This document shows positions 5,329 to 49,917 of a DNA stretch of 64,000 nt, piece by piece. The stretch is taken from positions 4,152,820 through 4,216,819 of the forward strand of contig LSYV01000003.1 of assembly GCA_001584585.1 (NCBI GenBank), given 5' to 3'. This DNA comes from Gonium pectorale. Its lineage: Eukaryota > Chlorophyta > Chlorophyceae > Chlamydomonadales > Volvocaceae. Under the pieces are notes generated by a model, which had not been told where the DNA came from, searched no databases, and was given only the letters and a program-made list of their open reading frames with translations. The stretch's first letter is position 1; each line of letters begins with the position of its first letter. A program made the position numbers and the translations under genes.

Positions 5329-8300
5329 ATGGCTGGTCCCGCGAGTCACGCGGCGGAGGGTGCTCCTACTGGTGACGTTGAAAAAGACGGGATGATAACG
5401 GCAGTGCGCAAGCAGCAGGCCCCTGCAGGCATTGGTGAGTAAGCGCTACATACTAACACCGTGGGCCGCCGCGAGATGCAAGCTTTGATTGCCCTTTGTT
5501 CTTCTTGTGAAAGCTGCGTATACATGCTACCCCGCTCGCAGAGCTGGGCGCCGCGAGCGCGAGGTGGTCTAACAAGCTCTCGCGGCTCGACGCCAACAAG
5601 GACGGAATCGTCGACATACACGAAGTGGCGACACTGATTGACGAGGTCGTGCGGGAGCAGAAGCTCCGAGAGGTCTTCATGTTCGTGTCAATTGGCTTGT
5701 TCGCGGTGGTCGCCATCCTCATCGGCGCCCTCACCGGCATCACGTATGGCATCGTGCAGATGGCAAAAGACACCAAGGTGGGAACGGGAGGTAAACCGCG
5801 TCCTGAACGCCGTTGCTACGGAGTCCGGTGGGCGGCGGCAGCGTCCGGGCGGCGAGCAGAGCAAGGCCAAAAGCGGGATACCGCTGCTTCGGGGGCCAAG
5901 GCCCTTGCGTGGGGTCCCCCTGTCAGTCTGTCAGCCAAAGACGTGCAGCGCCGGATTCTCTCGACAAGGCGGTGGTAGTTGTTACCTGGCACGTGGCAGT
6001 TGGTTTGCCACTGGAGTGGTAACCGCCGTGTGCGTAACATGTGTGGGGTTCCAAGCACCACCCCCCCAGGAGAGACGGAAATCTGACCATCCCTCTGCGG
6101 TCGTGCGTACCCAGGCATGTGTAGGAGCTGCTGAGCAAGCAGCGACCAATATACGGTTTGATATCATCATGACGGCTTTGTGCACTGATGACCCCTGTTG
6201 AACGTGACAATCAAGTGGTCAAGACGCCCCGCCCCCCGCCCCTGCCCCCTGGCCCCAGGTCACCACCAGCACCAACTGGCAGTACTCCGTGGTGACCACC
6301 AAGGAGGACAAGCCAGCCATCATGGGCGGCGCCGTGGTGAAAAAAGAGAAACCTGCATAGAAAGAGGGAGCCCGCCTCTACGGCCATACACGCCGGAAGG
6401 CGCGACGTTTCCAATAGGGCGGGCGGGTACAGAGCAAGACATGTGACGTTCGTCCCGTCCCCCACACGAACCTCAACACCCTCACCATTGCCCCGACGCT
6501 CCTGGCCAACAACAGCAACAACAGTAGCGGCGCAACCGGCCGTCGCCAGCTGTTGCAGGTGGCTGAGGACGGGTTCCTCCTGCTCGGCTCCATGCCCATT
6601 ACTACCGCCAGCGAGGGCTGCAACCTGATCCGCAACGGCATCAACCAGTTCCTAACGACCAGCGCCGGCGTGGATCCCGCCCTTGGCACCACCTCCCACC
6701 TCGTGGCCATGACCGTACTGTCGCAAACCGGCTGCGATGGCAGCAGCAGCAGCAGCAGCAGCGGCGACGGCCCCACCCCTGCTGCCAGTGGCGTGTCGGG
6801 GCGTGTCAGGGACGACCGCGGCACGTACTATGTCGTACAGTGTACGGCGAGCAGCTGTGCGGTGTCGTATGATGTACACGCCACCCTGGCCGCAGCCGGC
6901 GCTATGCTGGATGGCTCTGACGACGCTTCAATCACCGGCACGGCGCAGCGCCGCCTGCAGCAGGCGAACTGGGGCAGTTGTATGCGAGTGGTTACACTTT
7001 TTAACGGCAAGCAGTGCTGTTGGAAGTGCGGCAACAACTACGACCTGGACGGCAAGTGCGGCTGCAAGTCGTCCCCGGGCAAGGACAACGGCGAACAGTG
7101 CTTCCCTGCCGATGCAACTGTACAGGAGGGTCGTGAAAAAAGAGAAATCTGCACAGAAAGAGGGAGTCCGCCTCTACGGTCAACACACCCGAAGGCGCGA
7201 CGTTTCCAGTAGAGCGGGCGGGTATCGAGGAATGTGACGTTCGTCCCGCCCCCCAAAGACCGGCTTACCAGCTTACCCGGTTTGTCGGACTACGGGTGGG
7301 TGGTGCACTCCCTTGCAGTACACTCGGAGAGAGATGGGCTCAGCTTGGCACATGGACTGAAGTCTGTGACCTTTTGTGCCGCCCGCACTTCACATTTTGC
7401 CGTAACTTTTATGCACATGCATCGCAGGTGCTAGGCCGCGCAAGTCCCGTACGGATGGACGAGCTTCAGTACGGCGATCTGGTGCGCTCCCGCGACCGTG
7501 CTACCGGCGCCGAGGTGCACCGGCCGGTGTATGTGTTTGGGCACCGCGACGCGGACCGCACCGAGCCCTTCCTGCACCTGACCGCTGCCACCGCCGGCGG
7601 TGCGGCGGTCCGTGTGGAGCGCTCACTGGTCCTCACCGCACACCACTTCCTGCCCGTCTGCGTGGGCAGCAGCAGCAGCAGCAGCAGGGAGGACGAGCTG
7701 CTGCTCGCCCGCCGATGCGCCCTGGATGGAGTACAGGTATGTCAGCAGTTCATGTCGGCGCACGCACGCTGCCTAACGAGCGGGGTGGGTGCCTAAGTGG
7801 GGACGCCCTTGCTTGCATGTCTTGCTTGGTACAGCGTGCGCACCTTGGTCCGCGATTAGCTGCCACGTGAATCATGCACGGATTCGGGACATTGCTTCAG
7901 GACACGGCTTCGGGGCATTGCCAGCGTGTAAAGCGTGACTGCCCTTGAGGTGTCACACCGTACGGCTGCGTGGACAGGAGTGTCGAATATATCCTGTCCC
8001 GTGCCGCTCGTGCGGCGCCATGGCTTTATGGCCTGCAATCCACTCCCTTCCGTGTGCGCCAGGCGCGCTGGCGATGTACGCCCCGGCGACACGGTTGTCG
8101 TGGCCGGTGGTAGCGAGCAGCCTGTCCTGGCGGTTGTCACCTCTGCGGATGCGGTGCTGGCCAAGGGCCTGTACGCGCCGTTCGTCAGGGTGGGTGCCTG
8201 CCTGGGGCTGTCATGGTCCTGCATGTCAAATCTTATCTTTCTCGATTCCGTAAACCAGCCAGCCATCCGGTGTTGTTGGTCACTCTGCCGTATCTTGGCC

Positions 8301-8796
8301 ATGCACATGTACCCTCGGCAGCCGTGATGAAGAGACAGCATCGGCGTGTGCTTGGGCCGCTTGTCGTACGTCGATTGGCCGTCAACCGTCACGCCTGCTG
8401 TGTGCCGTGCATTCTGTTTAGCCAAGCCACCCGACGCCACCTGTACGCGCCCGCCCCCTCGCAGGGCGCCGACCTGTTCGTGGACGGCGTCCTGGCCTCG
8501 CCCCATGCCCACTGGCTTCTAGACACGGTGGCCCCCGCCTGGATGGTGCCGTATTGCCGTTCATCTACGAGGTCCTCCTGGCACCCGTGTACTGCCTGTA
8601 CTGCCTGGTCGGGCCGGACACGACCGAGCGGTTGGCTCACGGCGTGGGCTTCATTACCCTGGCCGAGAGCCGGCCGCAGCTTTACCCTGTCACCTACGCA
8701 GCGTTCCTGGCCGTGTTCTACCTGGCTCCTCTGGCATTCTCCGCGTCGCTTCTGCGTAAATTGGCTCGGCGTTCGGTTGCGTCCGGGGTGTTTTAG
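5329..8796 (+). CDS. EF-hand/transmembrane protein with C-terminal Hedgehog-type Hint autoprocessing domain
   Basis: Exons: 5329-5434, 5542-5777, 6259-6336, 6433-7119, 7428-7736, ~8063-8189, 8465-8796. The junctions of exons 1-5 are all in phase. Residues ~52-63 form an EF-hand loop (DANKDGIVDIHE). A transmembrane helix follows (VFMFVSIGLFAVVAILIGAL), then a Ser/Asn-rich extracellular part and a Cys-rich knot (CCWKCGNNYDLDGKCGC). The Hint domain begins at the catalytic-type Cys in EQCFPADAT, spliced to VLGRASPVRMDELQYGD. It has the TxxH motif (VLTAHHFLPV), then DVRPGDTVVV, LAKGLYAPF and GADLFVDGVLAS, matching the Hedgehog Hint order. In that family this domain performs an N-S acyl shift at the Cys and releases the upstream segment. 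Two later hydrophobic segments (VLPFIYEVLLAPVYCLYCLV; YAAFLAVFYLAPLAF) may anchor the C-terminus. Two places do not stay in frame: the exon 5/6 junction and ~8540-8552. The cause may be sequencing indels, a missed micro-exon or gene decay. Confidence 0.8.
6337..6454 (+). repeat. Family A element, copy 1 (forms nearly a whole intron)
   Basis: It starts GTGAAAAAAGAGAAACCTGC and ends ATGTGACGTTCGTCC. Its first base coincides with a phase-0 splice donor after exon 3, and an acceptor CAG (to 6432) or AAG (to 6438) lies inside its right part. The 96-102 nt intron is therefore essentially the element itself. Copies at 7133-7246 and 9982-10098 share the same order of sequence blocks. Confidence 0.75.
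7133..7246 (+). repeat. Family A element, copy 2 (inside an intron)
   Basis: Starts GTGAAAAAAGAGAAATCTGC and ends TGTGACGTTCGTCCC. It lies 13 bp after the donor (GTACAG at 7120) of the 308-nt intron that splits the Hint ADAT/VLGR junction. Compared with copy 1 it carries scattered substitutions and small indels. Confidence 0.75.
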
Positions 8797-9981: not shown

Positions 9982-10098
9982 GACGAACGTCACATGTCTT
10001 GCTCTGTATCCGCCCGCCCTATTGGAAACGTCGCGCCTTCGGGCGTGTATGGCCGTAGAGGCGGGCTCCCTCTTTCTGTGCAGGTTTCTCTTTTTTCG
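9982..10098 (-). repeat. Family A element, copy 3 (panB 3' region)
   Basis: Read on the minus strand it starts GAAAAAAGAGAAACCTGCAC and ends TGTGACGTTCGTC. It is very close to copy 1, including the CTACGGCCATACACGCC block and GGCGCGACGTTTCCAATAGG. It is in the sense orientation relative to panB but after its stop codon, so this copy is not needed as an intron. Confidence 0.75.
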
Positions 10099-49687: not shown

Positions 49688-49765
49688 CCGCATTGCCGTA
49701 TACCACCCCGCCTGCCCTGTTCGGAACGTCGCGCCCTCCGGTTTGTATTACCGTTGAGTCGGACT
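49688..49765 (-). repeat. Diverged family A fragment
   Basis: Plus-strand CCCGCCTGCCCTGTTCGGAA, then CGTCGCGCCCTCCGG and TGTATTACCGTTGAG. It parallels the middle of the copy at 9982-10098 (CGCCCGCCCTATTGGAAACG, TCGCGCCTTCGGGCGTGTAT). Confidence 0.5.
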
Positions 49766-49917
49766 CAATCATTGTAGCGTTTCAGGATATGCAAACACCT
49801 GCAAACATTCGCCATTCCTGGCCTCTAGGATATCCCGCTGGCCCCTTAGGGAGCTCAGGGGCGGGAGGGCCCGTCTGCTGCTCCCCCTCGCCCGCAATGC
49901 CTTGTAATGGACCGCCC

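What the first reader, a model, noticed from the sequence alone, without database searches (positions are those of the whole stretch)
5329..8796. Single-pass membrane protein joining an EF-hand to a Hedgehog-type Hint autoprocessing domain
Seen: EF-hand loop DANKDGIVDIHE, one transmembrane helix, Cys-rich ectodomain, then a Hint domain with the nucleophile Cys (CFPADAT), TxxH (TAHH) and the ordered Hint blocks. Known: Hint domains self-cleave by an N-S acyl shift; in Hedgehog the thioester is passed to cholesterol. Inferred: in this alga the Cys-rich ectodomain could be released, or attached to a lipid or other nucleophile, outside the cell, with the short cytosolic EF-hand sensing Ca2+. I do not recall this architecture being functionally described in algae.
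Basis: partly seen in the sequence, partly recalled or inferred. Interest (0 to 1): 0.88.

Follow-up and report, generated by a model that had tools for sequence, protein, structure and literature searches.

The report
Broken copy of algal Hedgehog-type self-cleaving family
This stretch of the colonial green alga Gonium holds a probably broken copy of a family of membrane proteins that carry the same self-cleaving domain as animal Hedgehog, fused behind a calcium-binding, membrane-crossing front end; the intact copies elsewhere in the genome are the interesting ones.

The parts
5329..5434 (+). exon 1, start ATG, presumed cytosolic N-terminus
   Evidence: splice alignment, GT donor
5542..5777 (+). 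exon 2: EF-hand loop DANKDGIVDIHE (5589-5624) running into the membrane helix (about 5673-5756)
   Evidence: similar in paralogues
6259..6339 (+). exon 3, first part, start of the ectodomain stalk
6340..6468 (+). 129-nt insert in exon 3; 6340-6464 is the fixed end of a high-copy element; two in-frame stops; no flanking repeat seen
   Evidence: matches of 8 paralogue loci run unbroken across the place
6469..7125 (+). exon 3, second part: ectodomain, RRQLL at 6541-6555, Cys cluster, then Hint nucleophile Cys at 7099-7101
7126..7427 (+). intron that begins GA; holds a second element copy at 7136-7297 flanked by GGGTCGTG/GGGTGGTG
   Evidence: loci L009 and L010 have a GT intron at the same place, the 13 others none
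7428..7714 (+). exon 4: Hint core; His at the Hedgehog Asp303 position (FGH, 7542-7544); TxxH motif TAHH (7635-7646)
7715..8062 (+). intron that begins AT where 13 of 13 alignable paralogue loci (L011-L023) read GT
8063..8189 (+). exon 5: Hint, second half
8465..8796 (+). exon 6: end of Hint (GADLFVDGVLASPHAHW), following helices and C-terminal hydrophobic stretch; frame changes near 8553

Best explanation
The locus is a decayed member of a Gonium family (at least 16 loci) of tethered Hog-type proteins. Intact members are probably anchored at both ends: cytosolic N-terminus with one EF-hand, a membrane helix, an N-glycosylatable ectodomain with RRxL-type linkers, a small Cys cluster, a Hedgehog-type Hint domain, further helices and a C-terminal membrane helix. 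Hint uses its first Cys for an N-S acyl shift and makes the C-terminus of the ectodomain a thioester. A second nucleophile (water, a thiol or a membrane alcohol such as a sterol), activated by the invariant His at the Asp303 position, then resolves it and separates the ectodomain from the Hint and its anchor. Shown here: gene family, predicted fold, residues, lesions of this copy. Inferred: topology, cleavage, nucleophile, role of Ca2+. The window copy itself is most likely not functional.
For: Hint by Pfam, by profile against the PDB and by fold of paralogue P0004. Cys in 22 of 22 rows that have a residue there (6 rows lack the stretch); His at the Asp303 position in 28 of 28 rows (P0016's is a chance alignment, since its annotated model skips that exon, so 27 of 27); TxxH His in 28 of 28, Thr 16 and Ser 12. 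16 of 16 Gonium loci have EF loop, Cys and FGH. Hydrophobic stretches at both ends. Sequons: 51 in 13 ectodomains against 28.9 after shuffling, 2 in the N-termini, 2 in the Hint parts. RRxL 21 against 1.3 (paralogues are not independent). Lesions. The window row has the longest end branch (0.86; others 0.013-0.58) of the 17-row volvocine group and departs from 5 of 60 strongly conserved columns, while the other Gonium rows except the mis-modelled P0016 depart from 0-2. D303H Hedgehog keeps activity and widens the substrate range (PMC9163320 section 11).
Against: No transcript or protein was seen. Some lesions could be got round: the aligner found an in-frame GT-AG path over most of the insert and an in-frame GT donor before the second element, and one base could be an assembly error; at the AT donor it found none and used a frame change. 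The window copy keeps Cys, His and TxxH, and 7 other rows depart from conserved columns as much or more. The splice models of L017, L019 and L020 also each needed one frame change, not looked into, and those of L009 and L010 are long and patchy; L009 and L010 are not among the 22 EF/TM matches. The residue before the Cys is variable (11 kinds in 22 rows, Gly in 2), unlike Hedgehog. The C-terminal helix has low model confidence.
Confidence: 0.66

Rival explanations
1. The window gene is intact and expressed: the element in exon 3 has become an intron, cryptic donors replace the lost ones, and the frame change near 8553 is an assembly error.
For: The splice aligner found an in-frame GT-AG path over the insert (6337-6438, adding ten residues) and an in-frame GT donor at 7120 that loses two residues; catalytic residues are kept.
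Against: Needs two unusual splices, a third that the aligner did not find, and one sequence error, all at one gene. 13 of 13 comparable loci have GT at the donor that reads AT here. Longest branch in its group.
Confidence: 0.13
2. Hint only cuts: the thioester is hydrolysed or taken by a thiol, so intact members release or rearrange ectodomains without any lipid adduct.
For: The SCYA Cys (C400 in Drosophila) is Pro in 27 of 28 rows. The sequence match to Hedgehog stops before the sterol recognition region. The -1 residue is variable.
Against: Conserved helices follow the Hint (block pLDDT 81-90 at 491-530), where Hedgehog has its sterol region; D303H Hedgehog is a good sterol ligase.
Confidence: 0.4
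3. The EF-hand/TM exons and the Hint exons are two neighbouring genes; the first ends in the insert's stop codon (147 aa).
For: As the DNA stands, exons 1-3 read to a stop at 6358-6360.
Against: Single proteins with both parts in Gonium and in unnamed relatives; the stop lies in a repeated element that interrupts a stretch continuous in 8 paralogue loci.
Confidence: 0.05

Closest known systems
Hedgehog C-terminal autoprocessing (Hog) domain, Drosophila/human Hedgehog (1AT0, 6TD6, 7E2I)
   Same: Hint fold, first Cys, TxxH His, helices after the Hint; best sequence and structure match
   Different: His for Asp303, Pro for the SCYA Cys, no Hedge signalling domain found, membrane front end, variable -1 residue
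Engineered Hedgehog D303H (6TYY)
   Same: His at the same general-base position; highest-scoring PDB chain, tied with 1AT0
   Different: Laboratory mutant; here the His is the natural, invariant state
Hog proteins of protists, red algae and mosses (Burglin 2008, PMC2362128)
   Same: Hog domain behind lineage-specific, often Cys-containing N-termini; the Cys of the paper's motif J is replaced in mosses and red algae (that motif J is the SCYA stretch is my recall)
   Different: Good signal peptides where the start is sure; 'green alga' and 'Chlamydomonas' do not occur in the text; no EF-hand/TM front end in the passages read
Sanguina aurantia WSC-Hint proteins (P0023, P0025)
   Same: Same Hint with the His (FGH, FSH) and the ASPHSDW stretch
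   Different: WSC domain in front (PF01822), no EF-hand/TM

Membership tests
Hedgehog-type Hint (Hog) domain | Hint fold nearest to Hedgehog | tested here: met
Hedgehog-type Hint (Hog) domain | First Cys of the Hint as nucleophile | tested here: met
   present in the window and in 16 of 16 loci; chemistry not tested
Hedgehog-type Hint (Hog) domain | TxxH motif | tested here: met
   His in 28 of 28 rows; Thr in 16, Ser in 12; the window has Thr
Hedgehog-type Hint (Hog) domain | Asp303 (D46) general base | tested here: not met
   His in 16 of 16 loci; D303H is reported active
Hedgehog-type Hint (Hog) domain | Cys of the SCYA motif (C400) | tested here: not met
   Pro in 27 of 28 rows, Ser in 1
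Hedgehog-type Hint (Hog) domain | Sterol recognition region after the Hint | tested here: inconclusive
   helices present, but the sequence match ends at the Hint
Hedgehog protein | N-terminal Hedge signalling domain | tested here: not met
   no such Pfam match in the window model at E<=1 or in 9 Hint relatives at E<=0.1
Intein | C-terminal Asn and following nucleophile for splicing | tested here: not met
   the Hint ends in ASPHSDW or close to it, no such pair, by eye; the feature itself is recalled
EF-hand protein | 12-residue Ca2+ loop | tested here: met
   16 of 16 loci by pattern. Pfam lists an EF-hand for 6 of 9 Hint relatives at E<=0.1, none over its cut-off (best 25.3 against 25.4, P0024); one search carries a precomputed PF00036 for P0016 and P0024
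EF-hand protein | Ca2+ binding | not testable with these tools
   needs a binding assay

The most novel reading that the evidence does not exclude
Gonium has a family of membrane-tethered Hogs that naturally use the His general base known from engineered Hedgehog. They would ligate a sterol or another membrane or wall alcohol to the C-terminus of a Cys-knotted ectodomain outside the cell, with RRxL cleavage freeing lipidated peptides that act between the cells of the colony: a second, plant-side use of Hedgehog chemistry.
Probability: 0.2. Interest if true: 0.82.

Novelty: new variant of a known kind. Interest (0 to 1): 0.5.

Why it matters
If intact members ligate an alcohol, Hedgehog-like lipidation would reach a colonial green alga, with a natural His general base that appears only as an engineered variant in the passages I read. 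It gives a ready test of how the residue at position 303 sets the substrate, and a multi-copy gene family in a model for the origin of multicellularity. The copy in the window itself matters little.

Tried and rejected
Literature: eight searches. None of the titles or abstract starts listed describes the function of a volvocine Hint protein; (Hint domain + EF-hand + transmembrane + alga) found no paper. The lists were capped (20 of 21, 20 of 2,276, 15 of 1,229, 12 of 329, 10 of 3,848), and most subscription papers are not held, so this does not show absence. Papers that hold the terms but were not opened include PMC5784728, PMC3879662, PMC12803021, PMC4031507 and PMC13353863. Opened: PMC2362128, passages and section 16; PMC9163320, passages and section 11; PMC8529194, passages. 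Zhao 2019 itself was not read.

Protein searches gave 30 proteins: 18 Gonium, 1 Pleodorina, 2 Sanguina, 9 without an organism name. None is named Chlamydomonas reinhardtii or Volvox carteri, but only about 8000 candidates were scored, so absence there is not shown. No hit could be tied to the window locus. One search, meant to find the EF/TM part in other proteins, returned only two family members; the genome search found others.

Full report
What is there. The window lies in a 128.9 Mb genome, at contig C3:4152820-4216819. Relatives found by protein search are named Gonium pectorale, and contigs C17 and C28 have exactly the lengths given for the contigs of the Gonium proteins P0016 and P0030, so I take the genome to be Gonium. 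A spliced model scores 77 bits to Pfam Hint (2e-21, cut-off 29.7).

A family, not a single gene. PF01079 matches 18 places in the genome (a lower bound), which I group into 16 loci. I fetched the 15 others (L009-L023), compared the window model with them and made splice models. In all 16 models the order is EF-hand loop, Cys, FGH, [TS]xxHF-type motif; Thr in 11, Ser in 5 (L010-L014). The EF/TM part of P0004 finds 14 of the 16 loci; the two divergent ones, L009 and L010, are not among the matches. Outside Gonium, five unnamed relatives of 580-673 aa have the same layout (P0021 with a degenerate EF loop), and so has Pleodorina starrii P0012, whose annotated model lacks the Hint start. Two Sanguina proteins have the same Hint behind a WSC domain.

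The His. Hedgehog's general base Asp303 is His in every member where that exon is present (the row of P0016 is not informative). A review reports that D303H in Drosophila has nearly the same structure, the same pKa and similar efficiency, and gains more than 200-fold on coprostanol (PMC9163320 section 11). The D46H crystal structure 6TYY is the top match. Against a simple sterol reading: the SCYA Cys is Pro (27 of 28 rows), and the sequence match stops at the end of the Hint.

Topology. The EF loop leads straight into one long helix, 22-73 in P0004, that holds the membrane stretch (block pLDDT 68-78 up to residue 70). A second hydrophobic stretch lies in the last 100 residues of 28 of 28 rows; in P0004 it is a helix at 543-569 of low confidence (59-65), followed by Arg/Lys in most members. 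Lys/Arg are 3-5 before and 1-3 after the first helix in 13 proteins, a weak sign for N-inside. Sequons are concentrated in the ectodomain (51 observed, 28.9 expected). The best guess is a two-pass protein with both ends in the cytosol. RRxL motifs stand in the ectodomain far above shuffled sequence (21 against 1.3); in P0004 they lie in or beside stretches of low confidence (130-144, 248-299). They may be processing sites (inference; not tested).

The front end is reused. The EF/TM part of P0004 gave 22 genome matches, 16 in Hint loci and 6 elsewhere. The membrane part of P0030, a Gonium protein with a VOMI domain, gave 41 matches: 5 in Hint loci, at weak E-values of 4.6e-6 to 5.8e-4, and 36 elsewhere, P0030's own included; some have a stop inside the aligned stretch. 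Of 15 non-Hint regions fetched, 13 have one EF-hand pattern upstream on the same strand and no other in six frames; L061 and L068 have none. So the unit looks like a common surface anchor of this alga, and a Ca2+ switch for Hint is not implied.

The window copy is probably dead. (1) 6340-6464 is the fixed end of a repeat with 1476 first-look candidates, 40 of them scored; copies share one end and vary at the other. The insert puts two stops in frame. In eight loci (L012, L013, L014, L016, L017, L021, L022, L023) a match runs unbroken across this place. (2) A second copy lies at 7136-7297 between GGGTCGTG and GGGTGGTG, inside an intron that starts GA; L009 and L010 have GT there, and the other 13 read on without an intron. 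(3) The next intron starts AT where 13 of 13 loci (L011-L023) read GT; annotated proteins such as P0004, P0005 and P0007 are spliced at that place. (4) The frame changes near 8553, before the last helices. The window row has the longest end branch, 0.86 against 0.013-0.58, in a 17-row group of weak support (82/83), and departs from 5 of 60 strongly conserved columns where the other Gonium rows, P0016 apart, depart from 0-2. Against: catalytic residues are kept, more distant relatives depart as much or more, and some lesions could be bypassed. I put the pseudogene at about 0.85.

Mechanism, graded. Hint fold in the family: shown by prediction. Cleavage at Cys by N-S acyl shift: inferred from family knowledge, about 0.8 for intact members. 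Resolution by water or thiol about 0.4-0.5, by a sterol-like alcohol about 0.35. Ca2+ control: open.

Known or new. Hog domains in protists, red algae and mosses are known (PMC2362128). The layout here, with a membrane front end and a natural His base, is a variant of that kind. Public records already name several members 'Hedgehog protein Hint domain-containing', so the news is in the combination, not the domain.

Noticed in passing
window 6340-6464, 7136-7297, 9982-10096 (-), 49707-49766 (-): Copies (the last one a partial match, 80%) of one high-copy element, 1476 first-look candidates in the genome, with a fixed AAAAAAGAG end and a ragged other end; probably a truncated retroelement.
   Followed up: partly
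L054-L067 and the other places: A large set of Gonium loci outside the Hint family with a membrane exon like that of the Hint family, in 13 of 15 regions looked at with an EF-hand pattern upstream; one encodes a 984-aa VOMI-domain protein (P0030).
   Followed up: partly
L012 and L013 (contig C7): Two very similar Hint genes about 40 kb apart on opposite strands, probably a recent inverted duplication.
   Followed up: no
L009 and L010 (contig C74): Two divergent Hint genes about 8 kb apart on opposite strands, with an intron right after block A that the 13 other non-window loci lack.
   Followed up: partly
P0023 and P0025 (Sanguina aurantia): Snow-alga proteins that pair a WSC domain with the same Hint.
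   Followed up: no
P0004 130-144 and 248-299: Two ectodomain linkers of low model confidence with RRxL motifs in or beside them, found in many members; possible processing sites.
   Followed up: partly
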